DNA from: Xiphophorus maculatus | Lineage: Eukaryota; Chordata; Actinopteri; Cyprinodontiformes; Poeciliidae | NCBI RefSeq assembly: GCF_002775205.1 | Contig: NC_036445.1 | Location: 32,924,453 to 32,988,452, forward strand | Direction of reading: 5' to 3' | Length of the DNA: 64,000 bases | Part shown: positions 6,961 through 60,439 of the stretch, one piece after another | Numbering within the stretch: position 1 is the first letter of the stretch | How the letters are laid out: each line of letters starts with the position of its first letter | The notes under the pieces: generated by a model | Database searches by the model: none | Told to the model about the DNA's origin: nothing | What the model saw: only the letters and a program-made list of their open reading frames with translations | Translations under genes and position numbers: made by a program

Positions 6961-7459
6961 NNNNNNNNNNNNNNNNNNNNNNNNNNNNNNNNNNNNNNNN
7001 NNNNNNNNNNNNNNNNNNNNNNNNNNNNNNNNNNNNNNNNNNNNNNNNNNNNNNNNNNNNNNNNNNNNNNNNNNNNNNNNNNNNNNNNNNNNNNNNNNNN
7101 NNNNNNNNNNNNNNNNNNNNNNNNNNNNNNNNNNNNNNNNNNNNNNNNNNNNNNNNNNNNNNNNNNNNNNNNNNNNNNNNNNNNNNNNNNNNNNNNNNNN
7201 NNNNNNNNNNNNNNNNNNNNNNNNNNNNNNNNNNNNNNNNNNNNNNNNNNNNNNNNNNNNNNNNNNNNNNNNNNNNNNNNNNNNNNNNNNNNNNNNNNNN
7301 NNNNNNNNNNNNNNNNNNNNNNNNNNNNNNNNNNNNNNNNNNNNNNNNNNNNNNNNNNNNNNNNNNNNNNNNNNNNNNNNNNNNNNNNNNNNNNNNNNNN
7401 NNNNNNNNNNNNNNNNNNNNNNNNNNNNNNNNNNNNNNNNNNNNNNNNNNNNNNNNNNN
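6961..7459. other. Assembly gap (499 N)
   Basis: A run of N lies between unique sequence and the first readable array module. The left boundary of the tandem array is therefore not in the data, and the true array may be longer. Confidence 0.99.
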
Positions 7460-10045
7460 TTACAGCCTTCGTATTTGATCGAACTCCTCCTAGGGATTTC
7501 GATTGATCGGCTTCAAACTCGGTCAGTCTGATCATAAGGCATGTCTGATTTAAAGTTATCAAATTGGTGAGTTTTGGAGCATGTTGAAGGGGGGTTACCA
7601 GGGGTCAAAGTTCACCTACACGCCATGAAACAAAAACCTCTTATATTTCATATACAAAACACATAGAGGGACCAAACTTTCAGTGATTGATCGACATCGA
7701 GTGTCCTAAAATACCCTGCAGTGAAATTTTTTTTTTATGTAGGCCACGCCCCCTGAGAGCAGGAAGTGTAATGTTTTACTGTGAACGGTCGCTATCTTAG
7801 CCCTTTGACCTAATCAACATGAAACTGTGTCCAGAGACAGAAGACATGTTGGTGTGTTGTGGATTCCAACCCCGACCGGCTGCGATGAAGCAGGTGGGCG
7901 TGGCGGCGTTGCGAACGCCATCGAATTTCGTTTGGCTCTGAATTCCACAGTTTCGGGGTGAGCTGCTCCAAACTCACTAGGATGGATCCTTATCCATCCC
8001 CGAACAGGAATCCATAGCGATATTTGGTGGGCGTGGCCTAATTTTTCTATAGCGACCCCTAGAGTATTTTAAATGAACAGCCCCAAGCCATGCTTAAACC
8101 TAGAATTACGAAACTTGGTACATATGTGTATCTTTTCAGGACGTACAAAAAAGTCTCTTGGAGCCATGCTCTAAACCCAACAGGAAGTCGGCCATTTTGT
8201 ATTGAAGGTCCATTCTGGACCTCGAGTTTGACGTTTACAGCCTTCGTATTTGATCGAACTCCTCCTAGGGATTTCGATTGATCGGCTTCAAACTCGGTCA
8301 GTCTGATCATAAGGCATGTCTGATTTAAAGTTATCAAATTGGTGACTGTATGAGCTTGCTGAAGCGGGGTTAGCAGGGGTCAAAGTTCACCTACTCGCCA
8401 TGAAACACGAAACTCTTATATTTCCTATACAAAAACACAGAGAGGGACCAAACTTTCATTGATTGATCGTCATCGGGTGTCCTAAAATACCCTGTGGTGA
8501 AATTATTTTTTTAAGTAGGCCACGCCCCCTGAGAACAGGAAGTGTCATGTTTTACTGTGAACGGTCGCTATCTTAGCCCTTTGACCTAATCAACATGAAA
8601 CTGTGTCCAGAGACAGAAGACATGTTGGTGTGTTGAGTTATTCCAACCCCGACCGGCTGCGATGAAGCAGGTGGCGTGGCGGCGTTGCGAACGCCGTCGA
8701 ATTTCGTTTGGCTCTGAATTCCACAATTTCGGGCCCAGCTGCTTCAAACTCACTAGGATGGATCCTTGTACACCCACCGACAGGAATTCATAACAAAATT
8801 TGGTGGGCGTGGCCTAATTTCTCTATAGCGACCCCTAGAGTATTTTAAATGAACAGCCCCATGCCATGCTTTATCCTAGAATTACGAAACTTGGTACACA
8901 TGTGTATCTTGTCGGGACGTACAAAAAAGTCTCTTAGAGCCATGCTCTAAACCCAACAGGAAGTCGGCCATTTTAGATTGAATTTCATTTGACCTCGATT
9001 TTGACTTTTACAGCCTTCGTATTTGATCGAACTCCTCCTAGGGATTTCAATTGATCGACTTCAAACTCGGTCAGTCTGATCATAAGGCATGTCTGATTCA
9101 AAGTTATCAATATGGTGACATTTGAACATGTGGAAGGGGGGTTAGCAAGGCTCAAAGTTCCCCTGTGATCGACTGTGTAATACAAAGGGCTTTGTCATGT
9201 GTAGGGCAATGCTGCCCTCTGGTGTCGAATAACTGAAATTACTGAAATAGTTTCATTATTTCAGTAATTCGACACCAGAGGGCAGCATTGCCCTACAGAG
9301 TTCAATTTTGTAATGTAGGAAAAAATTAAAAATTTGTAATTCTACTGTGAACGGTCGATAGCTTCTGCACCAAACTTTGCACGAGTGACCCTGGGGGATC
9401 CTTGACGACCCTATGTCATCATATTATGACGTCATCTAAGCCCCGCCCCCTCAGAACAGGAAGTGCCGTTTTTTACTTGGAAAGCTCCGTTTATGGCTCT
9501 CTTGACCTAATCAAGATGATTCGGATGATAAACTCTGTCAATGCTCGCTGCTGGCTGAACCGTGTGGGCGTGGCCAAATGGCGAATATCAGTCCCTCGCC
9601 ATATACATACGTTTGGCTCTAATTCACGCATGGATCATCCGATTGGCGCCAAACTGGATATGTATGACCTTTGTTCACCTCTAAAGAGCCCGACGGGTTT
9701 GAGATGTAATTTGACTCCACTGCGCCCCCTAAGTTGATACATCGGCCGTATCTCCTCGACGCATCGACCGATCTGCACCAGATTTTTTGACAGTCGTCGG
9801 GGAGCGCCGCTGAACGCATTCACGCCTGTCGCCCGGTGGACGGGCGGGGAAAATGCGCGACAGCTTCTGCGGCGGCTGGCGGGCGGCGATGCTGGAATCT
9901 GCGGCGGAGCTTCCGCGGTGGGGAGCAGGCTGCGGCTCTGGAAAGCGCGCGAGAGCTTCTGCGGTGGCTGGAACCCCCGCGGTGGCCAATAGGCCGGAGC
10001 GGCGCTTGCTGCGAGGGCCGCCCGAGGCTGCTTGCAGCTTTAATT
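7460..10045. repeat. Array unit 1 (left-truncated by gap)
   Basis: It contains three submodules (7460, 8235, 9008), an inverted-repeat insert at 9201-9296, a CRE at 9427-9434 and a GC-rich tail at about 9830-10030. Confidence 0.85.
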
Positions 10046-13000
10046 ATTAGGCCCGAGCAGCAAAGCGCTGCGAAGGCCTATTGTATCTGTACTGTTTATT
10101 ATTATTCTTATTATTCTTACCCCCCAAAGAGGTGCCTTTTTGGGGGCTTTATCATATTCAAAAACGCACCAAACTTGGCGGTCGCGACTAGGCAGTTTAA
10201 AAATTTTGAATTTTAAGGTCGATGCAAAAATCGCAAAAAAATTGGCTCAACGGCGCCAACTAGCAATTTTCAAAGGAAATTTTGCTATTCATTTACTTTA
10301 TCGTAGAGACATGAAATTTGGTACACATGTAGAGCTCACCAAGATGCTCAGAATTAGGTATAGATTTAGAAGTGCAAATATCACAGGAAGTCAGCCATTT
10401 TGTCTTGAACGTCCATTTTTTTCCTCGAGTTTGACGTTTACAGCCTTCGTATTTGATCGAACTCCTCCTAGGGATTTCGATTGATCGACTTCAAACTCGG
10501 TCAGTCTGATCATAAGGCATGTTTGATTTAAAGTTATCAAATTGGTGAGTTTTGGAGCATGTTGAAGGGGGGTTAGCAGGGGTCAAAGTTCACCTACTCG
10601 CCATGAAACACGAAACTCTTATATTTCCTATACAAAAACACAGAGAGGGACCAAACTTTCAGAGATTGGTCGTCATCGGGTGTCCTAAAATACCCTGTGG
10701 TGAAATTATTTTTTTAAGTAGGCCACGCCCCCTGAGAACAGGAAGTGTCATGTTTTACTGTGAACGGTCGCTATCTTAGCCCTTTGACCTAATCAACATG
10801 AAACTGTGTCCAGAGACAGAAGACATGTTGGTGTGTTGAGTAATCCAACCCCGACCGGCTGCGATGAAGCAGGTGGGTGTGGCGGCGTTGCGAACGCCGT
10901 CGAATTTCGTTTGGCTCTGAATTCCACAATTTCGGGCCCAGCTGCTCCAAACTCACTAGGATGGATCCTTATCCACCCACCGACAGGAATTCATAACAAA
11001 ATTTGGTGGGCGTGGCCTAATTTCTCTATAGCGACCCCTAGAGTATTTTAAATGAACAGCCCCAGGCCATGCTTTATCCTAGAATTACGAAACTTGGTAC
11101 ATATGTGTATCTTTTCAGGATGTACAAAAAAGTCTCTTGGAGCCATGCTCTAAACCCAACAGGCAGTCGGCCATTTTGTATTGAAGGTCCATTTTGGACC
11201 TCGAGTTTGACGTTTACAGCCTTCGTATTTGATCGAACTCCTCCTAGGGATTTCGATTGATCGGCTTCAAACTCGGTCAGTCTGATCATAAGGCATGTCT
11301 GATTTAAAGTTATCAAATTGGTGAGTTTTGGAGCATGTTGAAGGGGGGTTAGCAGGGGTTAAAGTTCACCTACTCGCCATGAAACACGAAACTCTTATAT
11401 TTCCTATATAAAAACACATAGAGGGACCAAACGTTCAGTGATTGATTGTCATAAGATGTCCTAAAATACCCTGTGGTGAAATGATGACATCACTTAAGCC
11501 ACGCCCCCTGAGAACAGGAAGTGTCATGTTTTACTGTGAACGGTCGCTATCTTAGCCCTTTGACCTAATCAACATGAAACTGTGTCCAGAGACAGAAGAC
11601 ATGTTGGTGTGTTGGGGATTCCAACCCCGACCGGCTGCGATGAAGCAGGTGGGCGTGGCGGCGTTGCGAACGCCATCGAATTTCGTTTGGCTCTGAATTC
11701 CACAGTTTCGGGGTGAGCTGCTCCAAACTCACTAGGATGGATCCTTATCAACCTGCCAACAGGAATCCATAGCGAAATTTGGTGGGCGTGGCCTAATTTC
11801 TCTATACGGTCCCCTAGAATATTTTTAAAAATCAGCCCCAAGCGATGCTTTAACTTAGAATTACGAAACTTGGTACACATGTGTATCTTGTCAGGACGTA
11901 CAAAAAAGTCTCTTAGAGCCATGCTCTAAACCCAACAGGAAGTCGGCCATTTTAGATTGAAGTTCATTTGACCTCGATTTTGACGTTTACAGCCTTCGTA
12001 TTTGATCGAACTCCTCCTAGGGATTTCGATTGATCGACTTCAAACTTGGTCAGTCTGATCACAAGGCATGTTTGATTTAAAGTTATCAAATTGGTGAGTT
12101 TTGGAGCATGTTGAAGGGGGGTTAGCAGGGGTCAAAGATCCCCTGTGATTGACATATTACACAGTCAATTACAAAGGGGATATTTAGTCATTCCGTAGGG
12201 CAATGCTGCCCTCTGGTGTCGAATTACTGAAATAATGAAACTATTTCAGTAATTTCAGTAATTCGACACCAGAGGGCAGCATTGCCCTACGGAATGACAG
12301 TTCAATGTTGAATTGAAAAGGAAAAAATTAAATAATTTGTAATTCTAACACAAAAGCTGACAGAGACACCAAAGTTTGAGTTATTGATCATTATCTTGTG
12401 TCCAATAATATCCAATGGTCAAATGATGACATCACGTAGGCCACGCCCTCTGACAACAGGAAGTCTTGTATTTTACTGTGAACGGTCGATAGCTTCTGCA
12501 CCAAACTTTGCACGAGTGACCCTGGTGGGTTCCTTGACGACCCTATGTCATCATATTATGACGTCATATAAGCCCCGCCCCCTCGGAACAGGAAGTGCCG
12601 TTTTTTTACTTGGAAAGCTCCGTTTATGGCTCTCTTGACCTAATCAAGATGATTCGGATGATAAACTCTGTCAATGCTCGCTGCTGGCTGAACCCTGTGG
12701 GCGTGGCCAAACGGCGAATATCAGTCCCTCGCCATATGCATACGTTTGGCTCTTATTCAGGCATAGATCATCCGATTGGCGCCAAACTGGATATGTATGA
12801 CCTTTGTTCACCTCTAAAGAGCCCAACGGGTTTGAAATGTAATTTGGCGCCACTGCGCCCCCTAAGGTAATACATGGGTTGTATCTCCTCGACGCATCGA
12901 CCGATCTGCGCCAGATTTTTCGACAGTCGTCGGGCAGCGCCGCCGAACGCATTCACGCGTATCGCCCGGTGGACGGGCGGGGAAAATGCGGGACAGCTTC

Positions 13001-13178
13001 TGCGGCGGCTGGCGGGCGGCGGTGCTGGAAACTGCGCCGGAGCTTCCGCGGTGGGGAGCGGGCTGCGGCTCTGGAAACCGAGCGAGAGCTTCTGCGGTGG
13101 CCGGTACCCCCGCGGTGGCCAATAGGCCGGAGCGGCGCTTGCTGCGAGGGCCGCCCGAGGCTGCTTGCAGCTTTAATT
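10046..13178. repeat. Array unit 2
   Basis: It starts with the GGCCCGAGCAGC head at 10050. It has submodules at 10438, 11214 and 11987, the cleanest palindromic insert (12187-12298), a CRE at 12559-12566 and a GC-rich tail at about 12960-13170. Confidence 0.85.
12187..12298. repeat. Palindromic insert (foldback MITE-like), best copy
   Basis: Arms beginning GTCATTCCGTAGGGC and ending GCCCTACGGAATGAC are complementary over about 48 bases around a short A/T centre. Further copies lie at 9201-9296, 17043-17138, 19856-19938, 22467-22549, 23077-23159 and 25235-25331. Several have one arm shortened. Units 4 and 7 carry a second palindrome directly before it (16981-17029), with arms CCCCTGTGATTGACTGTGTA and its complement. 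Confidence 0.85.
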
Positions 13179-15718
13179 AGGCCCGAGCAGCAAAGCGCTG
13201 CGAAGGCCTATTGTATCTGTACTGTTTATTATTATTATTATTAGGCCCGAGCAGCAAAGCGCTGCGAAGGCCTATTGTATCTGTACTGTTTATTATTATT
13301 ATTACGATTCTTCCCACCTCTTCGTGTGCCTTTTTGGGGGCTTTATCATATTCAAAAACTCACCAAACTTGGCGGTGGCGACTAGAAAATTTAAAAATTT
13401 TGAATTTTAAGGTTGTCGCAAAAATCGCAAAAAAAATTGCTGAACGGCGGCAACTAGCAATTTTCTGTTGACACAATGGTATGAACGTACTTCATCGTAG
13501 AGACATGAAATTTGGTACACTTGTAGAGCTCACCAAAAGACTCAGAACTTACATTGAATGTTATAAGCCAACTATCACAGAAAGTCGGCCATTTTGTATT
13601 GAACGTCCATTTTTTACCTCGAGTTTGACGTTTACAGCCTTCGTATTTGATCGAACTCCTCCTAGGGATTTCGATTGATCGACTTCAAACTCGGTCAGTC
13701 TGATCATAAGGCATGTTTGATTTAAAGTTATCAAATTGGTGAGTTTTGGAGCATGCTGAAGGGGGGTTAGCAGGGGTCAAAGTTCACCTACTCGCCATGA
13801 AACACGAAACTCTTATATTTCCTATATAAAAACACATAGAGGGACCAAACTTTCACTGATTGATCGTCATCGGGTGTCCTAAAATACCCTGTGGTGAAAT
13901 GATGACATCACTTAGGCCACGCCCCCTGAGAACAGGAAGTGTCATGTTTTACTGTGAACGGTCGCTATCTTAGCCCTTTGACCTCATCAACATGAAACTG
14001 TGTCCAGAGACAGAAGACATGTTGGTGTGTTGAGGATTCCAACCCCGACCGGCTTTGACATAGCAGGTGGGCGTGGCGGCGTGGCGAAGTGACCTGTAAC
14101 GCCGTTGCCATACGTTTGGCTCTGAATTCCACAATTTCGGGCCCAGCTGCTCCAAACTCACTAGGATGGATCCTTATCCACCCACCGACAGGAATTCATA
14201 ACAAAATTTGGTGGGCGTGGCCTAATTTCTCTATAGCGACCCCTAGAGTATTTTAAATGAACAGCCCCAAGCCATGCTTTATCCTAGAATTACGAAACTT
14301 GGTACATATGTGTATCTTGTCGGGACGTACAAAAAAGTCTCTTAGAGCCATGCTCTAAACCCAACAGGAAGTCGGCCATTTTGTATTGAAGGTCCATTGT
14401 GGACCTCGAGTTTGACGTTTACAGCCTTTGCATTTGATCGAACTCCTCCTAGGGATTTCGGTTGATCGGCTTCAAACTCGGTCAGTCTGATCATAAGGCA
14501 TGTCTGATTTAAAGTTATCAAATTGGTGACTGTATGAGCTTGCTGAAGGGGGGTTACCAGGGGTCAAAGTTCACCTACTCGCCATGAAACACCAAACTCT
14601 TATATATCCTGCACAGAAACTCACAGAGACACCAAACTTTCAGTTATTGATCATCAATAGGTGTCCTAAAATACCCTGTGGTGAAATTATGACATCGCTT
14701 AGGCGACGCCCCCTGAGAACAGGAAGTGTCATGTTTTACTGTGAACGGTCGCTATCTTAGCCCTTTGACCTAATCAACATGAAACTGTGTGCAGAGACAG
14801 AAGACATGTTGGTGTGTTGTGGATTCAAGCCCTGACCGGCTGCGATGAAGCAGCTGTGTGCGGCGGCATGGCGAAGTGACCTGTAACGCCGATGCCATAC
14901 GTTTGCTTCTAGATTCCACATGTTTCGACCGAGCTGCACTAAACTTGGCTTGAGTGATGCTGGTGTGATACCTGAAAATTCTATGTCATCAGATTATGAC
15001 GTCATCTAAGCCCCGCCCCCTCAGAACAGGAAGTGCTATTTTTTTCCTTGGAAACATTCATCTATGGCTCTCTTGACCTAATCAAGGTGATTCTGTGTTG
15101 GATGACAGATAGGAAGTTGGTCTCGCTTGCTTTAAAGTCCCAACAGTTTTCAATGGCGGCAACGCCGTTCGTATACGTTTGCCTCTACCTTCCACATATT
15201 TTGACCGAGCTGCATCAAACTTGGCCTGAGTGATCCTGGAGGCTTGCCCGTCAATCCTACGTCATCACATTATGACGTCATCTAAGCCCCGCCCCCTCGG
15301 AACCGGAAGTGCCGTTTTTTTCCTTGGAAAGCTCTGTTTATGGCTCTCTTGACCTAATCAAGGTGATTCTGTGTTGGATGACAGATAGGACGTTGGTCTC
15401 GCTTGCTTTAAAGTGCCAAGAGTTTTCAATGGCGGCAACGCCGTTCGTATACGTTTGCCTCTACATTCCACATATTTTGACCGAGCCGCATCAAACTTGG
15501 CCTGAGTGATCCTGGTGGGAGGCCCGTCGATCCTACGTCATCATATTATGACGTCATCTAAGCCCCGCCCCCTCGGAACAGGAAGTGCCGTTTTTTTCCT
15601 TGGAAAGCTCGCCCTAAACCATGCGAGAGCTCCTGCGGTGGCCGGAACCCCCGCGGTGGCCAATAGGCCGGAGCGGCGCTTGCTGCGAGGGCCGCCCGAG
15701 GCTGCTTGCAGCTTTAAT
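13179..15718. repeat. Array unit 3 (double head, truncated tail)
   Basis: The GGCCCGAGCAGC head is duplicated (13180 and 13244, period 64). Two submodules follow (13632, 14419). There is no palindromic insert. Three CREs lie at 14997, 15273 and 15549, the last two carried by a 276-bp internal tandem duplication. Only the last ~100 bases of the GC-rich tail remain. Confidence 0.85.
15008..15560. repeat. 276-bp tandem duplication inside array
   Basis: The block starting at the GC box after the CRE at 14997 and running through ATGGCGGCAACGCCG is repeated once, 276 bases later, with few differences. Each copy ends in a CRE. Confidence 0.8.
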
Positions 15719-18022
15719 TATTCTTATTTTTCTGCCCCCCCAAAGAGGCGCCTTTTTGGAGGCTTTAGCATATTCAAAAACTCACCAAACTTGGCGGATG
15801 CATACGGGGAGTTTAAAAATTTCGTATTTTAAGGTCGCCGCAAAAATCGCAAACAAATTGGCTCAACGGCGCCACCTAGCAATTTTCAAAAGACCCATTG
15901 CTATTCACTTACTTCATCGTAGAGACTTGAAATTCGGTACAGTTGTAGAGCTCACTAAGACGCTCAGAATTTACAAGTAATGTCATAGTGCAAGTATCAC
16001 AGGAAGTCGGCCATTTTGTATTGAAGGTCCATTTTGGACCTCGAGTTTGACGTTTACAGCCTTCGTATTTGATCGAACTCCTCCTAGGGATTTCGATTGA
16101 TCGGCTTCAAACTCGGTCAGTCTGATCATAAGGCATGTCTGATTTAAAGTTATCAAATTGGTGAGTTTTGGAGCATGTTGAAGGGGGGTTAGCAGGGGTT
16201 AAAGTTCACCTACTCGCCATGAAACACGAAACTCTTATATTTCCTATACAAAAACACAGAGAGGGACCAAACTTTCAGAGATTGGTCGTCATCGGGTGTC
16301 CTAAAATACCCTGTGGTGAAATTATTTTTTTAAGTAGGCCACGCCCCCTGAGAACAGGAAGTGTCATGTTTTACTGTGAACGGTCGCTATCTTAGCCCTT
16401 TGACCTAATCAACATGAAACTGTGTCCAGAGACAGAAGACATGTTGGTGTGTTGGGGATTCCAACCCCGACCGGCTGCGATGAAGCAGGTGGGCGTGGCG
16501 GCGTTGCGAACGCCATCGAATTTCGTTTGGCTCTGAATTCCACAGTTTCGGGGTGAGCTGCTCCAAACTCACTAGGATGGATCCTTATCCATCCCCGAAC
16601 AGGAATCCATAGAGATATTTGGTGGGCGTGGCCTAATTTTTCTATAGCGACCCCTAGAGTATTTTAAATGAACAGCCCCAAGCCATGCTTAAACCTAGAA
16701 TTACGAAACTTGGTACACATGTGTATCTTGTCGGGACGTACAAAAAAGTCTCTTAGAGCCATGCTCTAAACCCAACAGGAAGTCGGCCATTTTAGATTGA
16801 AGTTCATTTGACCTCAATTTTGACGTTTACAGCCTTCGCATTTGATCGAACTCCTCCTAGGGATTTCGATTGATCGACTTCAAACTCGGTCAGTCTGATG
16901 ATAAGGCATGTTTAATTTAAAGTTATCAAATTGGTGAGTTTTGGAGCATGTTGAAGTGGGGTTAGCAAGGCTCAAAGATCCCCTGTGATTGACTGTGTAA
17001 TATGTTACACAGTCAATTACAAAGGGGATTATTTTGTCATGTGTGGGGCAATGCTGCCCTCTGGTGTCGAATTACTGAAATAATTAAACTATTTCAGTAA
17101 TTTCAGTAAATCGACACCAGAGGGCAGCATTGCCCTACGGAATGACAGTTCAATGTTGAATTAAAGAGGAAAAAATTAAATAATTTGTAATTCTAACACA
17201 AAAAATCACAGAGACACCAAAGTTTGAGATATTGATCATCCTCGGGTGTAGAATAATATCCAATGGTCAAATGATGACATCACGTAGGCCACGCCCTCTG
17301 ACAACAGGAAGTCTCGTATTTTACTGTGAACGGTCGATAACTTCTGCACCAAACTTTGCACGAGTGACCCTGGTGGGATCCTTGACGACCCTATGTCATC
17401 ATATTATGACGTCATCTAAGCCCCGCCCCCTCAGAACAGGAAGTGCCGTTTTTTTCCTTGGAAAGCTCCGTTTATGGCTCTCTTGACCTAATCAAGATGA
17501 TTCGGATGATAAACTCTGTCAATGCTCGCTGCTGGCTGAACCGTGTGGGCGTGGCCAAATGGCGAATATCAGTCCCTCGCCATATGCATACGTTTGGCTC
17601 TTATTCATGCATAGATCATCCGATTGGCGCCAAACTGGATATGTATGACCTTTGTTCACCTCTAAAGAGCCCGACGGGTTTGATATGTAATTTGGCTCCA
17701 CTGCGCCCCCTAAGTTAATACATGGGCCGTATCTCCTCGACGCATCGACCGATCTGCGCCAGATTTTTCGACAGTCGTCGGGCACCGCCGCCGAACGCAT
17801 TCACGCGTGTCGCCCGGTGGACGGGCGGGGAAAATGCGCGACAGCTTCTGCGGCGGCTGGCGGGCGGCGGTGCTGGAAACTGCGGCGGAGCTTCCGCGGT
17901 GGGGAGCGGGCTGCGGCTCTGGAAACCGAGCGAGAGCTTCTGCGGTGGCCGGAACCCCCGCGGTGGCCAATAGGCCGGAGCGGCGCTTGCTGCGAGGGCC
18001 GCTCGAGGCTGCTTGCAGCTTT
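15719..18022. repeat. Array unit 4
   Basis: It lacks the head. It has submodules at 16054 and 16827, two adjacent palindromes (16981-17029 and 17043-17138), a CRE at 17407-17414 and a full GC-rich tail. It is nearly identical to unit 7, about 8.19 kb downstream. Confidence 0.85.
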
Positions 18023-20689
18023 AATTAGGCCCGAGCAGCAAAGCGCTGCGAAGGCCTATTGTATCTGTACTGTTTCTTATTATTCTTCTTACGATTCTGC
18101 CCCCCTCTTCGTGCGCCTTTTTGGGGGCTTTATCATATTCAAAAACTCACCAAACTTGGCGGAAGCGACTAGGCGGTTTAAAAATTTTGAATTTTAAGGT
18201 CGCCGCAAAAATCGCAAAAAAAATTGCTCAACGGCGGCAACTAGCAATTTTCAACAGACCCATTGCTATTCACTTACTTCATCGTAGAGACTTGAAATTC
18301 GGTACAGTTGTAGAGCTCACTAAGACGCTCAGAATTTACAAGTAATGTCATAGTGCAAGTATCACAGGAAGTCGGCCATTTTGTATTGAAGGTCCATTTT
18401 TTACCTCGAGTTTGACGTTTACAGCCTTCGTATTTGATCGAACTCCTCCTAGGGATTTCGATTGATCGGCTTCAAACTCGGTCAGTCTGATCATAAGGCA
18501 TGTCTGATTTAAAGTTATCAAATTGGTGAGTTTTGGAGCATGTTGAAGGGGGGTTAGCAGGGGTCAAAGTTCACCTACACGCCATGAAACAAAAACCTCT
18601 TATATTTCCTATACAAAAACACATAGAGGGACCAAACTTTCAGTGATTGATCGTCATCGGGTGTCCTAAAATACCCTACAGTGAAATTTTTTTTTTATGT
18701 AGGCCACGCCCCCTGAGAGCAGGAAGTGTAATGTTTTACTGTGAACGGTCGCTATCTTAGCCCTTTGACCTAATCAACATGAAACTGTGTCCAGAGACAG
18801 AAGACATGTTGGTGTGTTCTGGATTCCAACCCCGACCGGCTGCGATGAAGCAGGTGGGCGTGGCGGCGTTGCGAACGCCATCGAATTTCGTTTGGCTCTG
18901 AATTCCACAGTTTCGGGGTGAGCTGCTCCAAACTCACTAGGATGGATTCTTATCCATCCCCAAACAGGAATCCATAGCGAAATTTGGTGGGCGTGGCCTA
19001 ATTTTTCTATAGCGACCCCTAGAGTATTTTAAATGAACAGCCCCAAGCCATGCTTAAACCTAGAATTACGAAACTTGGTACACATGTGTATCTTGTCGGG
19101 ACGTACAAAAAAGTCTCTTAGAGCCATGCTCTAAACCCAACAGGAAGTCGGCCATTTTAGATTGAAGTTCATTTGACCTCGATTTTGACGTTTACAGCCT
19201 TTGCATTTGATCGAACTCCTCCTAGGGCTTTCGATTGATCGGCTTCAAACTCGGTCAGTCTGATCATAAGGCATGTCTGATTTAAAGTTATCAAATTGGT
19301 GACTGTATGAGCTTGCTGAAGGGGGGTTACCAGGGGTCAAAGTTCACCTACTCGCCATGAAACACGAAACTCTTATATTTCCTATACAAAAACACATAGA
19401 GGGACCAAACTTTCAGTTATTGATCATGATTAGGTGTCCTAAAATACCCTGTGGTGAAATGATGACATCGCTTAGGCCACGCCCCCTGAGAACAGGAAGT
19501 GTCATGTTTTCCTATGAACGGTTGCTATCTTACCCCTTTGACCTAATCAACATGAAACTGTGTCCAGAGACAGAAGACATGTTGGTGTGTTGTGGATTCA
19601 AGCCCTGACCGGCTGCGATGAAGCAGCTGGCTGTGGCGGCGTGGCGAAGTGACCTGTAACGCCGATGCCATACGTTTGCTTCTAGATTCCATATATTTCG
19701 ACCGAGCTGCACCAAACTTTGCCTGACTCATCCTGGTGTGATACCTGACAATGCTATGTCATCATATTATGACGTCATCTAAGCCCCGCCCCCTCAGAAT
19801 GAATTAGAGAGATCTTCTGTGTAATTACATAATAAACAGTCCATGTTCGTTGTTTGTAGGGCAATGCTGCCCTCTGCTGCCCACTGAAATAGTTTCATTA
19901 TTTCAGTAATTCGACACCAGAGGGCAGCATTGCCCTACGGAATGAAAGTTCAATGTTGTAATGGAGGAAAAAATTAAATAATTAGTAATTCTAACACAAA
20001 AACTCACAGAGACACCAAACGTTCAGTGATTGATCATAATCGAGTGTCCAATAATATCCAATGGTTAAATGATGACATCACTTAGGCCCCGCCCCCTCGG
20101 AACAGGAAGTGCTATTTTTTTACTTGGAAAGCTCTGTTTATGGCTCTCTTGACCTAATCAAGATGATTCGGATGATAAACTCTGTCAATGCTCGCTGCTG
20201 GCTGAACCGTGTGGGCGTGGCCAAATGGCGAATATCAGTCCCTCGCCATATACATACGTTTGGCTCTTATTCAGGCATAGATCATCCGATTGGCGCCAAA
20301 CTGGATATGTATGACCTTTGTTCACCTCTAAAGAGCCCGACGGGTTTGAAATGTAATTTGGCTCCACTGCGCCCCCTAAGTTAATACATGGGCTGTATCT
20401 CCTCGACGCATCCACCGATCTGCACCAGATTTTTTGACAGTCGTCGGGGAGCGCTGCCGAACGCATTCACGCGTGTCGCCTGGTGGATGGGTGTGGAAAA
20501 TGCGCGACAGCTTCTGCGGTGGCTAGCGGGCGGCGGTGCTGGAAACTGCGGCGGAGCTTCTGCGGTGGGGAGTTGGCTGCGGCTCTGGAAATCGTGCGAG
20601 AGCTTCTGCGGTGGCTGGAACCCCCGCGGTGGCCAATAGGCCGGAGCGGCGCTTGCTGCGAGGGCCGCCCGAGGCTGCTTGCAGCTTTA
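18023..20689. repeat. Array unit 5
   Basis: The head is at 18028. Submodules lie at 18419 and 19192, a CRE at 19770-19777 and a shortened palindrome at 19856-19938. The GC-rich tail ends near 20689. Confidence 0.85.
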
Positions 20690-23600
20690 ATTATTCTTAT
20701 TATTCTTCCACCCAAATGAATTGCCTTTTTGGGGGCTTTATCATATTCAAAAACTCACCAAACTTGGCGGTCGCATAAAACGAGTTTTAAATTTAAGTAC
20801 TGTAAGGTCGTCGCAAAAATCGCAAAAAAAATTGCTCAACGGCAGCAACTAGCAATTTTCAAAAGACCCATTGCTATTCACTTACTTCATCGTAGAGACT
20901 TGAAATTCGGTACAGTTGTAGGGCTCACTAAGACGCTCAGAATTTACAAGTAATGTCATAGTGCAACTATCACAGAAAGTCGGCCATGTTGGATTGAAGG
21001 TCCATTTCGGACCCTATTTTGGCCGTTTACAGCCTTCGTATTTGATCGAACTCCTCCTAGGGATTTCGATTGATCGGCTTCAAACTCGGTCAGTCTGATC
21101 ATAAGGCATGTCTGATTTAAAGTTATCAAATTGGTGAGTTTTGGAGCATGTTGAAGGGGGGTTACCAGGGGTCAAAGTTCACCTACACGCCAGGAAACAA
21201 AAACCTCTTATATTTCCTATACAAAAACACATAGAGGGACCAAACTTTCAGTGATTGATCGTCATCGGGTGTCCTATAATACCCTGCAGTGAAATTTTTT
21301 TTTTACGTAGGCCACGCCCCCTGAGAGCAGGAAGTGTAATGTTTTACTGTGAACGGTCGCTATCTTAGCCCTTTGACCTAATCAACATGAAACTGTGTCC
21401 AGAGACAGAAGACATGTTGGTGTGTTGTGGATTCCAACCCCGACCGGCTGCGATGAAGCAGGTGGGCGTGGCGGCGTTGCGAACGCCATCGAATTTCGTT
21501 TGGCTCTGAATTCCACAGTTTCGGGGTGAGCTGCTCCAAACTCACTAGGATGGATCCTTATACACCCGCCAACAGGAATCCATAGCGAAATTTGGTGGGC
21601 GTGGCCTAATTTCTCTACATCTCCCCCTAGAATATTTAGAAAAATCAGCCCCAAGCCATGCTTAATCCTAGAATTACGAAACTTGGTACACATGTGTATC
21701 TTGTCAGGACGTACAAAAAAGTCTCTTGGAGCCATGCTCTAAACCCAACAGGAAGTCGGCCATTTTGGATTGAAGGTCCATTTTGGACCTCGAGTTTGAC
21801 GTTTACAGCCTTTGCATTTGATCGAACTCCTCCTAGGGATTTCGATTGATCGGCTTCAAACTCGGTCAGTCTGATCATAAGGCATGTCTGATTTAAAGTT
21901 ATCAAATTGGTGACTGTATGAGCTTGCTGAAGGGGGGTTACCAGGGGTCAAAGTTCAGCTACTCGCCATGAAACACGAAACTCTTATATTTCCTATACAA
22001 AAACACAGAGAGGGACCAAACTTTCATTGATTGATCGTCATCGGGTGTCCTAAAATACCCTGTGGTGAAATTATTTTTTTAAGTAGGCCACGCCCCCTGA
22101 GAACAGGAAGTGTCATGTTTTACTGTGAACGGTCGCTATCTTAGCCCTTTGACCTAATCAACATGAAACTGTGTCCAGAGACAGAAGACATGTTGGTGTG
22201 TTGTGGATCCAAGCCTTGACCAGCTGCGATGAAGCAGCTGGGTGTGGCGGCGTGGCGAAGTGACCTGTAACGCCGATGCCATACGTTTGCTTCTAGATTC
22301 CACATGTTTCGACCGAGCTGCACCAAACTTGGCCTGACTCATCCTGGTGTGATACCTGACAATGCTATGTCATCATATTATGACGTCATCTAAGCCCCGC
22401 CCCCTCAGAATGAATTAGAGAGATCTTCTGTGTAATTACATAATAAACAGTCCATGTTCGTTGTTTGTAGGGCAATGCTGCCCTCTGCTGCCCACTGAAA
22501 TAGTTTCATTATTTCAGTAATTCGACACCAGAGGGCAGCATTGCCCTACGGAATGACAGTTCACTGTTGTAATGGAGGAAAAAATTAAATAATTTGTAAT
22601 TCTAACACAAAAACTCACAGAGACACCAAACGTTCAGTGATTGATCATAATCGAGTGTCCAATAATATCCAATGGTCAAATGATGACATCACTTAGGCCA
22701 CGCCCCCTGAGAACAGGAAGTGTCATGTTTTACTGTGAACGGTCGCTATCTTAGCCCTTTGACCTAATCAACATGAAACTGTGTCCAGAGACAGAAGACA
22801 TGTTGGTGTGTTGTGGATCCAAGCCCTGACCGGCTGCGATGAAGCAGCTGGGTGTGGCGGCGTGGCGAAGTGACCTGTAACGCCGATGCCATACGTTTGC
22901 TTCTAGATTCCACATGTTTCGACCGAGCTGCACCAAACTTGGCCTGACTCATCCTGGTGTGATGCCTGACATTGCTATGTCATCATATTATGACGTCATC
23001 TAAGCCCCGCCCCCTCAGAATGAATTAGAGAGATCTTCTGTGTAATTACATAATAAACAGTCCATGTTCGTTGTTTGTAGGGCAATGCTGCCCTCTGCTG
23101 CCCACTGAAATAGTTTCATTATTTCAGTAATTCGACACCAGAGGGCAGCATTGCCCTACGGAATGAAAGTTCAATGTTGTAATGGAGGAAAAAATTAAAT
23201 AATTAGTAATTCTAACACAAAAACTCACAGAGACACCAAACGTTCAGTGATTGATCATAATCGAGTGTCCAATAATATCCAATGGTCAAATGATGACATC
23301 ACTTAGGCCCCGCCCCCTCGGAACAGGAAGTGCTATTTTTTTACTTGGAAAGCTCCGTTTATGGCTCTCTTGACCTAATCAAGATGATTCGGATGATAAA
23401 CTCTGTCAATGCTCGCTGCTGGCTGAACCGTGTGGGCGTGGCCAAATGGCGAATATCAGTCCCTCGCCATATGCATACGTTTGGCTCTTATTCAGGCATA
23501 GATAATCCGATTGGCGCCAAACTGGATATGTATGACCTTTGTTCACCTCTAAAGAGCCCGACGGGTTTGAAATGTAATTTGGCTCCACTGCGCCCCCTAA

Positions 23601-23907
23601 GTTAATACATGGGCTGTATCTCCTCGACGCATCGACCGATCTGCGCCAGATTTTTCGACAGTCGTCGGGGAGCGCCGCCGAACGCATTCACGCGTGTCGC
23701 CCGGTGGACGGGCGGGGAAAATGCGCGACAGCTTCTGCGGCGGCTGGCGGGCGGCGGTGCTGGAGACTGCGCCGGAGCTTCCGCACTGGCGAGCGGGCTG
23801 CGGCTCTGGAAAACGCGCGAGAGCTTCTGCGGTGGCTGGAACCCCCGCGGTGGCCAATAGGCCGGAGCGGCGCTTGCTGCGAGGGCCGCCCGAGGCTGCT
23901 TGCAGCT
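20690..23907. repeat. Array unit 6 (with 610-bp internal duplication)
   Basis: Submodules lie at 21027 and 21803. A block carrying a CRE and a shortened palindrome occurs twice with a period of 610 (CREs 22381 and 22991; palindromes 22467-22549 and 23077-23159). The GC-rich tail follows. Confidence 0.85.
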
Positions 23908-26218
23908 TTAATTATTCTTATTTTTCTGCCCCCCCAAAGAGGCGCCTTTTTGGAGGCTTTAGCATATTCAAAAACTCACCAAACTTGGCGGATGCATACG
24001 GGGAGTTTAAAAATTTCGTATTTTAAGGTCGCCGCAAAAATCGCAAACAAATTGGCTCAACGGCGCCACCTAGCAATTTTCAAAAGACCCATTGCTATTC
24101 ACTTACTTCATCGTAGAGACTTGAAATTCGGTACAGTTGTAGAGCTCACTAAGACGCTCAGAATTTACAAGTAATGTCATAGTGCAAGTATCACAGGAAG
24201 TCGGCCATTTTGTATTGAAGGTCCATTTTGGACCTCGAGTTTGACGTTTACAGCCTTCGTATTTGATCGAACTCCTCCTAGGGATTTCGATTGATCGGCT
24301 TCAAACTCGGTCAGTCTGATCATAAGGCATGTCTGATTTAAAGTTATCAAATTGGTGAGTTTTGGAGCATGTTGAAGGGGGGTTAGCAGGGGTCAAAGTT
24401 CACCTACACGCCATGAAACAAAAACCTCTTATATTTCCTATACAAAAACACATAGAGGGACCAAACTTTCAGGGATTGATCGACATCGGGTGTCCTAAAA
24501 TACCCTGCAGTGAAATGTTTTTTTATGTAGGCCACGCCCCCTGAGAGCAGGAAGTGTAATGTTTTACTGTGAACGGTCGCTATCTTAGCCCTTTGACCTA
24601 ATCAACATGAAACTGTGTCCAGAGACAGAAGACATGTTGGTGTGTTGTGGATTCCAACCCCGACCGGCTGCGATGAAGCAGGTGGGCGTGGCGGCGTTGC
24701 GAACGCCGTCGAATTTCGTTTGGCTCTGAATTCCACAGTTTCGGGGTGAGCTGCTCCAAACTCACTAGGATGGATCCTTATCCATCCCCGAACAGGAATC
24801 CATAGAGATATTTGGTGGGCGTGGCCTAATTTTTCTATAGCGACCCCTAGAGTATTTTAAATGAACAGCCCCAAGCCATGCTTAAACCTAGAATTACGAA
24901 ACTTGGTACACATGTGTATCTTGTCGGGACGTACAAAAAAGTCTCTTAGAGCCATGCTCTAAACCCAACAGGAAGTCGGCCATTTTAGATTGAAGTTCAT
25001 TTGACCTCAATTTTGACGTTTACAGCCTTCGCATTTGATCGAACTCCTCCTAGGGATTTCGATTGATCGACTTCAAACTCGGTCAGTCTGATCATAAGGC
25101 ATGTTTAATTTAAAGTTATCAAATTGGTGAGTTTTGGAGCATGTTGAAGTGGGGTTAGCAAGGCTCAAAGATCCCCTGTGATTGACTGTGTAATATGTTA
25201 CACAGTCAATTACAAAGGGGATTATTTTGTCATGTGTGGGGCAATGCTGCCCTCTGGTGTCGAATTACTGAAATAATTAAACTATTTCAGTAATTTCAGT
25301 AAATCGACACCAGAGGGCAGCATTGCCCTACGGAATGACAGTTCAATGTTGAATTAAAGAGGAAAACATTAAATAATTTGTAATTCTAACACAAAAAATC
25401 ACAGAGACACCAAAGTTTGAGATATTGATCATCCTCGGGTGTAGAATAATATCCAATGGTCAAATGATGACATCACGTAGGCCACGCCCTCTGACAACAG
25501 GAAGTCTCGTATTTTACTGTGAACGGTCGATAACTTCTGCACCAAACTTTGCACGAGTGACCCTGGTGGGATCCTTGACGACCCTATGTCATCATATTAT
25601 GACGTCATCTAAGCCCCGCCCCCTCAGAACAGGAAGTGCCGTTTTTTTCCTTGGAAAGCTCCGTTTATGGCTCTCTTGACCTAATCAAGATGATTCGGAT
25701 GATAAACTCTGTCAATGCTCGCTGCTGGCTGAACCGTGTGGGCGTGGCCAAATGGCAAATATCAGTCCCTCGCCATATGCATACGTTTGGCTCTTATTCA
25801 CGCATAGATCATCCGATTGGCGCCAAACTGGATATGTATGACCTTTGTTCACCTCTAAAGAGCCCGACGGGTTTGAGATGTAATTTGGCTCCACTGCGCC
25901 CCCTAAGTTAATACATGGGCCGTATCTCCTCGACGCATCGACCGATCTGCGCCAGATTTTTCGACAGTCGTCGGGCACCGCCGCCGAACGCATTCACGCG
26001 TGTCGCCCGGTGGACGGGCGGGGAAAAAGCGCGACAGCTTCTGCGGCGGCTGGCGGGCGGCGGTGCTGGAAACTGCGGCGGAGCTTCCGCGGTGGGGAGC
26101 GGGCTGCGGCTCTGGAAACCGAGCGAGAGCTTCTGCGGTGGCCGGAACCCCCGCGGTGGCCAATAGGCCGGAGCGGCGCTTGCTGCGAGGGCCGCCCGAG
26201 GCTGCTTGCAGCTTTAAT
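23908..26218. repeat. Array unit 7 (right end)
   Basis: It is nearly identical to unit 4. Submodules lie at 24248 and 25020, palindromes at about 25175-25220 and 25235-25331, and a CRE at 25600-25607. After GCAGCTTTAATT it switches abruptly to AT-rich unique sequence. Confidence 0.85.
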
Positions 26219-27640
26219 TCAAGTTTTGGACCGTTTATTTTACTGTCTAAAAAATAATATTCACTTGTGTGGTATATTTTGGTGATATTCCAATATATTC
26301 TTGAATATTCCTTCACATACAAAAAAATATTATTGTTTTGAAGAGATCATAGACATTTTCTAATCCGTTTATTTACGTTTGTCGCGTTTTGATCAGGAAA
26401 CGACACAGCCACCTAATTTTTTACAAACATCTGCGTTGAGGACCCCGTTTGACTGTCACTAGTTAATTTTAATGCGGCTCGTTTTGTTTTTAAGTGTATT
26501 TCCCCTCGTCACCAGCCTGCAAACTGTTTCCTAGTAGAGAACACAGACAAATACTGCAGATATGGCTCATAATCTGTTGGTGGTGTCTGACAGTATAATG
26601 TAGGAACATTTATTATTATAATTTTGGCTTGTGAATTTGGATATCACCACCAACTACAACATTGGCTGTTAACCTTATATCATTTAGGTGAGATTTTATT
26701 GCAGTATAACTTAACATTACTTGATATTCCTCTCTATTTGGACACGTGAACACCACAAGCAACACCATCAGGGATGTAATTTAAATTTTATTAAATATGA
26801 TGACATCAACCTCATTGTTCAGCGACACTTACTGTGGGTAGTGTCGCTAAAAAATGAATTAAGTCCAGAAACAGTACGGCTGCATTGCAGGATCTGAGCC
26901 AAAACACACTCTAGGCTAGAAGTGTTAAGCAAATCATATTACAGGTTCTTGAGAGTCAATTCCAATGTTTTTCTGATCAGTGCTGGTTACAAAAAGCAGA
27001 AACCTTCCACTTATGTTTACATTGTGGCTGTTCATGAGATTAAATGAATTTATTCTGGTGAACCTGAATGTGAATGGGATTGTGGTGTTACTCATTGATC
27101 TGGTTTTGCTCCAATGCCGTGTTTTCAAAGCGAACTCAACGCTGCTCTGTAGAAACTTGCTTTGAAATATAATTTTCACGTGCAACATTTAACATATTTG
27201 CTTCAAATGGGATTTATAGTAAGGTTTTGAAGACAGTTTTGTCACACAAGTAGCATTTTTCAACAGGCATCAACACAGCCACCTACAATTTAGAAACATC
27301 TGCGGTGCGCATAAGTTTCAACCAGTTAATTTAGCCACCAGTTAATCTGTAACACCTTGAAGCAGTTCCTGAAGAGTCGTGCGCACAGCTACTCCTCTAC
27401 CTAACTTTACCTGCAGTGGACGTTTCCACAAACAGTCGGGTTGGAATTTGAACTTCTGACCTCTCATCTACTCTCAACATGTTTCTACAGAAATATTTGC
27501 TTAAGTCAAATCGGAAACATTGCCGTTCTCTACCGCAACATTAACTCCTTACTGCACAAACTATCCAGACTGTGGTTCAGTCCAGTTTGGAGCCACGCAG
27601 TATTTTTGCAGATTGTAGTTCTTTTTTCCTGTCCAGCAGC
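26219..27640. other. AT-rich sequence between array and aldh2-like exon
   Basis: I saw no exon on either strand. In particular there is no recognisable second aldehyde dehydrogenase exon on the minus strand. Confidence 0.5.
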
Positions 27641-45400: not shown

Positions 45401-48400
45401 GCTTCTTACAGTCCCCCGCAAACACACCCCGACACACACTGTCCATAGCTAGGTCTGCCAACTAAACACAGAGGAAAACAACTCAATAGCACAAATAGAT
45501 TTCATCGATTTGATTAGATCTAAGTGTGGTGTTTTTTATTCTCCATTATAAATCAATGGAACCAAATTCTGTAAAAAAGAAAGTCAAAAGCAGTCTCATG
45601 GCAATGTACTATATACCAAACAGGAAGTTGGCAATTTTGATATTTTTGCACTATGTTGTGCTTTGATGAACATCTCTGGCAAATTTGAAGATATCGGCTT
45701 CAAACACTCCAAAGTCATTGGAGAGTCATCTTCATTCATGTAAACTTCACCAAATTTTCCTACTACAATTCTTGTCAACCTTAAAGCACATTTTCATTAA
45801 TATATTATGCAAGAGTGATGGTTGCCTTGTTTTACTTAAGAATTATGGAATTAAAAACACAACTAAAACCCATTAGGCTGTTGGCCCAGTCAAAAAACCT
45901 CCTGGACCCACAGCTCAAAGCTTACAGGAAGTCAGCCATTTGGTGGCATGCTTAATGGTGGATCTGTTTCAGGCCCTCTCATAACAGCTCCAAACCGGTC
46001 CAGTGAAGCACAGCTGAGTTATATCACATTATTATGTATATTACAGGAAGTATTCAATTTTTAAAAAATGATTTATTGGTTTTTGTGGCCTTTATTTAAG
46101 AGTGATCAGACAGGATAGTGGGTAATGAGAGAGGGGCTAGACATGCAACAAAGGTCATCAGACCAGGATTTGAACCTGTGACAGCTGCGTCGTGGACTAA
46201 GGTCTCCATATGCGAGTTGTGTTCTACCCCTGCAACACCACAGCGCCCCTAAGTATTCCACTTTTGGTTGTCGTTCTCACAGTCCTTCACCACTGAACCA
46301 GAAATCAGTCAAGCACCAACAAGCAAGATCTGATTTCTGTTTGATAACTGACTGCAGCTGGCCAGCTGTCCTTTTCAAGGATTGCAAAAAACACAATTTA
46401 GTGGCTCTGTGCAGGTACTGCCAGCCAAGCAGTGAACATGTTAAGGAGGCGGAGCCAGAAACCCATAGGTTGTAGCACCATCTCTGTGTGAGGGATGCCC
46501 AATTCTTCTTGTCGCTTTGAGGCATAAACAATGAAAGCGCTGTGATGGCCTATTATAATTGAAAATACACTGCCTGGCCAAAAAAAAAAGTCGCCACCAA
46601 AAAATGGTCACACTCTCTAATATTTTGTTGGACCGCCTTTAGCTTTGATTACAGCCCGCATTCGCTGTGGCATTGTTTCAATAAGCTTCTGCAGTGTCAC
46701 AAGATTTAATACCATGCAGTGTTGCATTAATCTTTCACCAAGATCTTGTATTGATGACACATCCCAAAGATTCTCAATGGGGTTAAGGTCTGGACTCTGT
46801 GGTGGCCAATCCATGAGTGAAAAAGATGTCTCATGCTCCCTGAACCACTGTTTCACAATGTGAGCCCGATGAATCCTGGCATTGTCATCTTGGAATATGC
46901 CCGTTCCATTTGGGAAGACAAAATCCATTGATGGAATAACCTGGTCATTCAGTATATTCAGGTAGTCAGCTGACCTCATTCTTTGGGCACACAATGTTGC
47001 TGAACCTAGACCTGACCAACTGCAGCAACCCCAGATCATAGCACTGCCCCCACAGGCTTGTACAGTAGGCACTAGGCATGATGGGTGCATCACTTCACCT
47101 GCCTCTCTTCTTACCCTGATGCGCCCATCACTCTGGAACAGGGTAAATCTGGACTCATCAGACCACATGACCCTCTTCCATTCCTCCAGAGTCCAATCTT
47201 TATGCTCCCTAGCAAACTGAAGCCTTTTTTTCTGGTTAGAGGTTTTCTTATGGCTACACAGCTGTTCAATCCCAACCCCTTGAGTTCCCTTCGCATTGTG
47301 CGTGTGGAAATGCTTTTGCGTTCACAATTAAACATACTCCTGAGTTCTGCTGTTGTTTTTTCTTTGATTTGATTTGACCAAACGTTGAAGTAATCGCTGA
47401 TCACGATCATTCAGGATTTTTTTCTGACCACATTTCTTCCTGGAAGACGATGGTTCCCCACCATCCTTCCAGGTTTTAATGATGACAGTTCTTAACCCAA
47501 TTCTAGTAGTTTCTGCAATCTCCTTAGATGTTTTCTCTGCTTGATGCATGCCAATGATTTGACTCTTCTTAAACAGACTAACGTCTTTTCCACGACCACA
47601 GGATGTGTCTTTTGCCATGGTTGTTTAAGAAATGAGGAGTTACTCATTGCATCAGCTGGGGTTAAATAACTTGTTGCCAGCTGAAAGATAATCGCCTATG
47701 CAGTACTTATCCAATAGGAGGCTTGTACCTATTTGCTTAGTTAAATCCAGGTGGCGACTTTTTTTTTGGCCAGGCAGTGTATTTTCTTTTGTTAAATGAA
47801 GCGTGTTTTTGGGGGGCCTAAAATACTCAAAAACTTAATCTGCACAAAATTCTATGAAATTTTCTGTATTACAATGAAATTCATAAAAATGGGAATGGCC
47901 AAATGGTGAAACAGTGCCCTCTAACCTCAGGCAGGCCGACCCATTTATTGAAGACAATTCAAGTTAGCTACACATAGAGGTCTCTCCAAGTTGAGTAAAA
48001 AAATTTTAGGAGGTATGTCCTAAAAACAATCAGGAAATCAGCCATTTTGTGTTTTAGTGATTTTGCGTGTCAAACTTTGATGAACTTGTCCTAGGTATTT
48101 TACGGTATCAATCAAATTTAAGGAGCTAAACTACTTCTTTACCCGTTTTGAAACCTACCAGCAGAACCATTTTGCTCCTCAACCCAACCCACCCATTTCC
48201 TTCACCACTCAACTCATTGTACAGAAGCATGATGTCAGGTGGCTACTTCTGGCAGTGAATGCCAAGAAAGCTGCCAGCCCAGAAAGAGTAACTGGTAAAG
48301 TGCTCAGAGTGTGCCCTACCAGCTTGTACCCATCTTTACCAGGATCTTTACCTCTTCCTCAGTCAAGCAGTCATCCCACCGCGCCTACAATCAACGATAC

Positions 48401-55693: not shown

Positions 55694-55700
55694 TGGCTGA

Positions 55701-60356: not shown

Positions 60357-60439
60357 GTTTAATTAATTAATTAATTAATTAATTAATTAATTAATTAATT
60401 AATTAATTAATTAATTAATTAATTAATTAATTAATTAAT
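60357..60439. repeat. (TTAA)n microsatellite
   Basis: About 20 perfect tetranucleotide units, inside the hAT element. Confidence 0.97.

What the first reader, a model, noticed from the sequence alone, without database searches (positions are those of the whole stretch)
7460..26218. A 19-kb higher-order tandem array of an unnamed composite repeat
Seven units of 2.3-3.2 kb are each assembled from 2-3 submodules of about 775 bp plus a palindromic insert, a CRE/GC-box block and a GC-rich tail. Copies vary in submodule number and carry internal duplications, so it grows by unequal exchange at two scales. It resembles neither a simple satellite nor any transposon whose protein I can see. The submodules themselves reuse words (ACAGGAAGT, AAACTTGG, GGCCATTTT), suggesting an older, smaller period.
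Basis: seen in the sequence. Interest (0 to 1): 0.75.

Follow-up and report, generated by a model that had tools for sequence, protein, structure and literature searches.

The report
Self-nesting non-coding transposon array
This 18.8-kb stretch of what looks like a fish genome is one of many arrays of a gene-less mobile element present in over a thousand copies, which seems to grow by inserting again and again into the target site that it carries beside its own front end.

Summary
The array is real: seven units of 2.3-3.2 kb, 7460-26219, from a 499-N gap to an exact right end. Each unit is a copy of a non-coding mobile element: 5' hairpin box, ATT microsatellite, leader, ~775-bp tandem modules, 3' box with the inverted hairpin and a small palindrome. 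The window's own 704-Mb genome holds 1086 3' boxes and 1218 5' boxes (controls 0), as solo copies and as many arrays on both strands. In arrays the 5' boxes are stacked at the left end and most internal junctions lack one: the pattern left by copies inserting into the ATT tract beside an earlier copy's 5' box. An array with four 3' boxes and three headless junctions had exactly four stacked 5' boxes. Across 16 arrays the left stack follows the number needed (Spearman 0.79, permutation p 0.0009). Unequal exchange and conversion act on top (U4 and U7 98.9% identical). By structure the element is closest to non-autonomous Helentrons (HINEs); the enzyme source is untested, and a 3-bp ATT target duplication is not excluded. 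In this array the palindromic inserts carry 14 CTCF-like motifs in seven divergent pairs; binding is unknown. New variant of a known kind.

The parts
6961..7459 (.). assembly gap (499 N) that hides the left end of the array, where three stacked 5' boxes are predicted
7460..10045 (+). unit U1 (5' part lost in the gap): 3 submodules, palindromic insert, tail
10046..13178 (+). unit U2: head hairpin, 3 submodules, insert, tail
13179..15719 (+). unit U3: doubled head hairpin, 2 submodules, three 276-bp CRE modules, no palindromic insert
15720..18026 (+). unit U4, headless; 98.9% identical to U7
18027..20692 (+). unit U5: head hairpin, variant insert
20693..23913 (+). unit U6, headless; block of 610-bp period with insert doubled
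23914..26219 (+). unit U7, headless; ends exactly at unique flank
10046..10106 (+). 5' box: hairpin AGGCCcgaGCAGC...GCTGCgaaGGCCT and ATT microsatellite (further copies start at 13179, 13243 and 18027)
9987..10045 (+). 3' box of U1: subterminal inverted repeat CAATAGGCC...GGGCC (59 to 26 bp from the end) and palindrome GGCTGCTTGCAGCTT (20 to 5 bp from the end); same box in all 7 units, 1 difference in 413 bases
9210..9287 (.). palindromic insert of U1, divergent pair of CTCF-like motifs (- then +)
12204..12281 (.). palindromic insert of U2, divergent CTCF-like pair
17052..17129 (.). palindromic insert of U4, divergent CTCF-like pair
19865..19929 (.). palindromic insert of U5, divergent CTCF-like pair (variant left arm)
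22476..22540 (.). first palindromic insert of U6, divergent CTCF-like pair (variant left arm)
23086..23150 (.). second palindromic insert of U6, divergent CTCF-like pair (variant left arm)
25245..25322 (.). palindromic insert of U7, divergent CTCF-like pair
14897..15610 (+). 276-bp modules of U3 (CRE TGACGTCA, GC box, ACAGGAAGT), 2.6 copies, 90% matches
46534..46557 (+). half hairpin of an old decayed relative; weak on its own (BLAST E 0.95)
   Evidence: score 18, maximum 17 in 40 Markov flanks
47795..48065 (+). leader of the old relative, separated from the hairpin by a Tc1-type element
   Evidence: score 31, maximum 26 in 40 Markov flanks
49049..49558 (+). submodule parts of the old relative, beyond a stretch with a LINE-like fragment
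   Evidence: E 1.2e-10 (49049-49186), 2.5e-6 (49360-49558), best of 20 controls 0.004; score 49, maximum 25

Best explanation
The unit is a non-autonomous mobile element that carries its own landing site. Shown: constant 5' and 3' boxes; no coding capacity; over a thousand copies, solo and in arrays; an ATT tract directly behind the 5' box; 5' boxes stacked at the left ends of arrays with headless bodies to the right; recent exchange between units. Inferred: a new copy inserts into the ATT tract between an earlier copy's 5' box and its body, pushing the older box left and the older body right, so that repeated insertion gives ((( ))) order; conversion and unequal crossing-over then homogenise modules. 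Also inferred, less surely (about 0.55): the enzyme is a Helentron-type Rep/helicase acting in trans. In this array the visible order, unit by unit, is ')' '()' '(()' ')' '()' ')' ')', that is 4 boxes for 7 bodies, so three 5' boxes should lie in the gap.
For: 3' box: 572 + 514 matches with up to 3 mismatches, control 0; 5' box: 624 + 594, control 0. In 30 loci the 3' box is followed by a 5' box in 8, by a headless leader in 15, by unique flank in 7. Array C1:14.37 Mb: four 3' boxes, three headless junctions, exactly four stacked 5' boxes at its left end; the array C3:32.89 Mb, just left of the window, has 9 and 9, six of them stacked at its left end. Exact-match lists for contigs C1-C3: 93 tails, 95 heads; 16 arrays; left stack against number needed: Spearman 0.79, permutation p 0.0009 (0.002 without our own array); left-end stacks mean 2.81 (n=16), internal 0.54 (n=69). 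Solo copy of ~2.7 kb with one box at each end. Hairpin 0 of 47 columns variable, adjacent leader 68 of 316 (p 3.6e-5); leaders 78-92% identical between distinct units, first submodules 92-99%. Helentron-like anatomy.
Against: Only 5 of 16 arrays balance exactly on the lists; 7 are one and 2 are two heads short, and 2 have four heads too many. The lists hold exact matches only, so mutated boxes are missed, but the surplus heads may be ATT slippage. A shuffle test of well-formedness inside the 5 balanced arrays does not discriminate (product 0.24). Doubled heads in U3 are identical, as slippage would also give. U4 and U7 share one junction by descent. No Rep/helicase seen in the window (58 of 100 frames scanned); the genome search for PF14214 did not complete. 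Both left flanks seen end in ATT and the right flanks follow ...TTTAATT, so a 3-bp ATT duplication is possible. The low variability of the last 59 bp is not extreme within the tail (69 of 583 windows).
Confidence: 0.75

Rival explanations
1. Same nested growth, but the element is a cut-and-paste DNA transposon with a 3-bp ATT target duplication, not a rolling-circle element.
For: Both left flanks seen end in ATT, and all 8 right junctions (7 loci and the window) read TTTAATT.
Against: The inverted repeats are subterminal and asymmetric (next to the 5' end, 26 bp from the 3' end), and a separate 3' palindrome follows, as in HINEs.
Confidence: 0.25
2. Arrays grow in place by unequal exchange; heads are lost and doubled by slippage between ATT tracts.
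For: U4/U7 98.9% identical, 610-bp and 64-bp duplications; two arrays with four surplus heads. Tandem arrangement of small elements is put down to unequal crossing-over for maize Wukong TRIMs (PMC4528315, start of abstract in the listing).
Against: Slippage does not predict that left-end stacks match the number of headless bodies (p 0.0009) or the ((())) array. Leaders are much more diverged than boxes.
Confidence: 0.12
3. A host-selected insulator array of the DXZ4/D4Z4 type, kept for its CTCF sites.
For: 14 motifs of score 18 or more where 0.012 are expected, all in divergent pairs; 34 of 38 motif columns invariant against 74 of 115 other insert columns (p 0.0036); CpG o/e 0.84-0.96 against 0.60 and 0.36 in the flanks.
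Against: About four independent insert lineages only; matrix recalled; the solo copy has no such words and 12 of 30 loci lack them; CpG transitions are 1.9-2.8 times as frequent as other C/G transitions. The family is spread widely, so no single locus looks selected.
Confidence: 0.05

Closest known systems
HINE / DINE-1 (non-autonomous Helentrons; PMC4067079, passages)
   Same: palindromic subterminal inverted repeats, separate 3' palindrome, microsatellite, central repeats, no coding capacity
   Different: 2.3-3.2-kb unit, 775-bp modules, CTCF-like palindromes in part of the family, genome-wide arrays with stacked 5' boxes
Oyster non-autonomous Helitrons/Helentrons with satellite-like central repeats (PMC8268682, PMC12628747, passages)
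   Same: left box - microsatellite - tandem monomers - right box; arrays arising from the element
   Different: monomers there are mostly 160-180 bp and the arrays described are of monomers; here the whole element is the higher-order unit
Truncated Helitron tandem arrays of plants (Xiong et al. 2016, as cited in PMC12628747)
   Same: multiple 5' ends in one array
   Different: those often have many 5' ends and a single 3' end; here 5' and 3' boxes are about equal in number (95 and 93 on the lists used) but 5' boxes are stacked at one end
Transposon dimers through insertion-site preference (McGurk and Barbash 2018, as cited in PMC12628747); MuTAnT elements targeting TA microsatellites (PMC4486113, start of abstract)
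   Same: target preference as the source of tandem copies; microsatellite as target
   Different: here the preferred target is carried inside the element, next to its own 5' box
CTCF macrosatellites DXZ4 and D4Z4 (titles and abstracts in the listing)
   Same: ~3-kb tandem units with CTCF sites
   Different: no relation tested; binding unproven here

Membership tests
Mobile (interspersed) element | many dispersed copies, solo copies with both ends | tested here: met
   (1086 and 1218 boxes); solo copy C1:188533-191232
Helentron / HINE | palindromic subterminal inverted repeats at both ends | tested here: met
   (score 38, maximum 28 in 500 shuffles)
Helentron / HINE | short palindrome near the 3' end | tested here: met
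   GGCTGCTTGCAGCTT, 20 to 5 bp from the end of all 7 units
Helentron / HINE | microsatellite and/or central tandem repeats, no coding capacity | tested here: met
Helentron / HINE | insertion at T-rich / TT sites without target duplication | tested here: inconclusive
   two left/right flank pairs, both compatible with T|T and with a 3-bp ATT duplication
Helentron / HINE | autonomous partner with Rep/helicase and the same ends | not tested
   genome search for PF14214 did not complete
CTCF macrosatellite | CTCF occupancy and insulation | not testable with these tools
   motifs only

The most novel reading that the evidence does not exclude
A self-targeting transposon that carries its landing site beside its own 5' end and so turns itself into bracket-ordered macrosatellites across a genome, some subfamilies spreading divergent CTCF pairs that act as transposon-made insulator arrays.
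Probability: 0.12. Interest if true: 0.78.

Novelty: new variant of a known kind. Interest (0 to 1): 0.55.

Why it matters
The bracket order records the sequence of insertions, so each array is a readable history of how a mobile element becomes a macrosatellite, a step that is usually inferred from end products. It gives a simple test (count stacked 5' boxes against headless bodies) for any genome. If the CTCF pairs are bound, array length would also be a natural dosage series for boundary strength.

Tried and rejected
Rfam and tRNA scans of the window: nothing. Words of the element in full texts: only unrelated papers. Exact words in viral contigs: 0 hits in 3 scans; in genome contigs 1 hit, in a Prevotella contig, taken as chance (about 0.5 expected by my arithmetic); phage records: none. 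Protein search with one array ORF and one left-flank ORF: none at E 0.001. Protein-coding origin rejected (0 of 48 array frames). Twenty 10-kb samples of the genome held no match at E 1e-4; at about 1.5 boxes per Mb that is expected and says nothing. The first own-genome search that was answered used 3 kb of the array and could not be scored (too many candidates). Papers: search listings (several capped at 12-20 rows out of far more) and 'find' passages of PMC4067079, PMC12628747 and PMC8268682; no whole text. None of the listed titles or shown abstract starts describes this family, bracket-ordered arrays or a CTCF-bearing Helentron; that is no proof of absence.
Full report
Observation. The window holds a tandem array from the right edge of a 499-N gap (6961-7459) to 26219. 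Cutting at the 3' end GCAGCTTTAATT gives seven units: 7460-10045, 10046-13178, 13179-15719, 15720-18026, 18027-20692, 20693-23913 and 23914-26219. Nine full submodules of 772-787 bp are 91.8-98.6% identical (mean 94.4%). GC is 46-47% and CpG o/e 0.84-0.96 in the units, against 0.60 and 0.36 in the left and right flanks. Homology of the 775-bp module with leader, insert, tail and 276-bp modules (E 6e-12 to 6e-27, small database) supports an older, smaller module.

Anatomy. Headed units begin with a hairpin, AGGCCcgaGCAGCaaagcGCTGCgaaGGCCT(ATTG), followed by an ATT-rich microsatellite; all seven units end with CAATAGGCC...GGGCC (the inverted repeat of the head), then GGCTGCTTGCAGCTT and TAATT. 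The inverted match scores 38 against at most 28 in 500 shuffles. None of the 48 frames of 90 aa or more that overlap the array matches Pfam. The plan resembles that of non-autonomous Helentrons: palindromic subterminal repeats 2-4 nt from the 5' and 38-60 bp from the 3' end, a palindrome 8-35 bp from the 3' end, sometimes microsatellites or tandem repeats (PMC4067079, passages); left box, microsatellite, tandem monomers, right box (PMC8268682, passages). Here the 3' repeat lies 59 to 26 bp and the palindrome 20 to 5 bp from the end, so only their starts fall within the published ranges.

Dispersal. On the exact-match lists for contigs C1-C3 there are 8 clusters with one of each, 5 with a 5' box alone, and 16 arrays with two or more 3' boxes, on both strands. 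The solo copy at C1:188533-191232 is about 2.7 kb long, with flanks GTTCATT|AGGCCC and GCTTTAATT|TCTTTT. An old decayed relative also lies in the window at 46.5-49.6 kb: submodule score 49 and leader 31 against maxima of 25 and 26 in 40 Markov versions of the right flank, hairpin 18 against 17; the hairpin alone is weak (BLAST E 0.95) and the 3' box was not found. A Tc1-type transposase frame (46620-47321, minus; DDE_3, E 1.4e-12) lies between hairpin and leader, and a reverse-transcriptase-like fragment (48418-48708; RVT_1, E 5.6e-4, below cut-off) between leader and submodule parts.

Nested growth. Following the 3' box in 30 loci: a 5' box in 8, a headless leader in 15, unique flank in 7. 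If new copies insert into the ATT tract between an earlier 5' box and its body, boxes pile up on the left and bodies on the right, like opening and closing brackets. The array C1:14.37 Mb has four 3' boxes and three headless junctions, so the rule asks for four boxes at its left end; the stretch was then fetched and has exactly four (this particular prediction was not noted beforehand). The array C3:32.889-32.913 Mb, about 19 kb left of ours, reads ((((())))): nine and nine. Over 16 arrays, with 93 3' boxes and 95 5' boxes on the lists (exact matches on C1-C3 only, a small part of all, single copies included; rows on C4 were dropped because the lists break off there), the left stack follows the number needed: Spearman 0.79, permutation p 0.0009, or 0.002 without our own array, whose left end is in the gap. 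Left-end stacks average 2.81 (n=16), internal ones 0.54 (n=69). Five of 16 arrays balance exactly and all five are well-formed, but a shuffle test within them does not discriminate (product 0.24); seven are one head short, two are two short, and two have four heads too many. Our array shows 4 heads for 7 bodies (six exact 3' boxes and U4's with one mismatch), so three heads should lie in the gap. By arithmetic from U2 (391 bp from box to first submodule) plus two further boxes of about 61-64 bp, the missing stretch would be about 515 bp; the gap is drawn as 499 N, which may be nominal.

Other processes. U4 and U7 are 98.9% identical over 2307 bp, beginning inside the preceding tails: recent exchange or block duplication. 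Leaders are 78-92% identical between distinct units (U4 and U7 identical), first submodules 92-99%, hairpins identical (0 of 47 columns variable against 68 of 316 in the leader, p 3.6e-5). So units of different origin stand side by side and their modules are partly homogenised. The 3' box differs at 1 of 413 bases, though by window rank within the tail this is not extreme (69 of 583; U3 left out there).

CTCF-like sites. With a recalled matrix, 14 sites of score 18.0-18.6 lie in the array, two per palindromic insert, always minus then plus; 13 other sites of 10 or more lie elsewhere in the window, none above 17.0. Expected in the array at 18 or more: 0.012; per 2.4-kb unit 0.0015, which is the fairer figure because copies are related. 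Motif columns are invariant in 34 of 38, other insert columns in 74 of 115 (p 0.0036), with only about four lineages. In the genome the CTCF core words occur in 18 of 30 loci and not in the solo copy, so the insert marks part of the family. CpG transitions are 1.9-2.8 times as frequent as other C/G transitions (19/576 v 45/2582; 26/708 v 20/1506, U3 left out; 15/186 v 20/696). Whether CTCF binds is unknown.

Verdict. A non-autonomous, probably Helentron-like element with over a thousand copies whose arrays, this one included, are best explained by nested self-insertion plus homogenisation.

Noticed in passing
C3:32889122-32913130 (own genome): A second array of the same family (9 boxes of each kind) lies about 19 kb left of this one.
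   Followed up: partly
44499-44798 (-): ORF with a weak match to protoporphyrinogen oxidase (PDB, E 0.0029); the 55547-55828 (-) ORF also reads like its N terminus by eye.
   Followed up: partly
46620-47321 (-), 52154-52960 (+): Two Tc1-type transposase ORFs (DDE_3); the first lies between parts of the old relative.
   Followed up: partly
48418-48708 (+): Fragment resembling a reverse transcriptase (RVT_1, E 5.6e-4, below the Pfam cut-off).
   Followed up: no
45587-45644 and 45892-45944: Two short borderline matches to the ACAGGAAGTCGGCCATTTTG end of the submodule (E 0.003; best control 0.004); perhaps a second relict.
   Followed up: partly
C2:391841-392269 and C3:21777054-21777409 (own genome): Stacks of eight and seven 5' boxes with fewer 3' boxes on the exact list (10 to 6 and 7 to 3): slippage, lost bodies or mutated 3' boxes.
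   Followed up: no
60359-60439: A pure (TTAA)20 microsatellite, near CA, TCT, CCAGAA and TG tracts at 59.4-63.3 kb.
   Followed up: no
2213-2659 (-): 149-aa ORF without Pfam match or homologue at E 0.001.
   Followed up: partly
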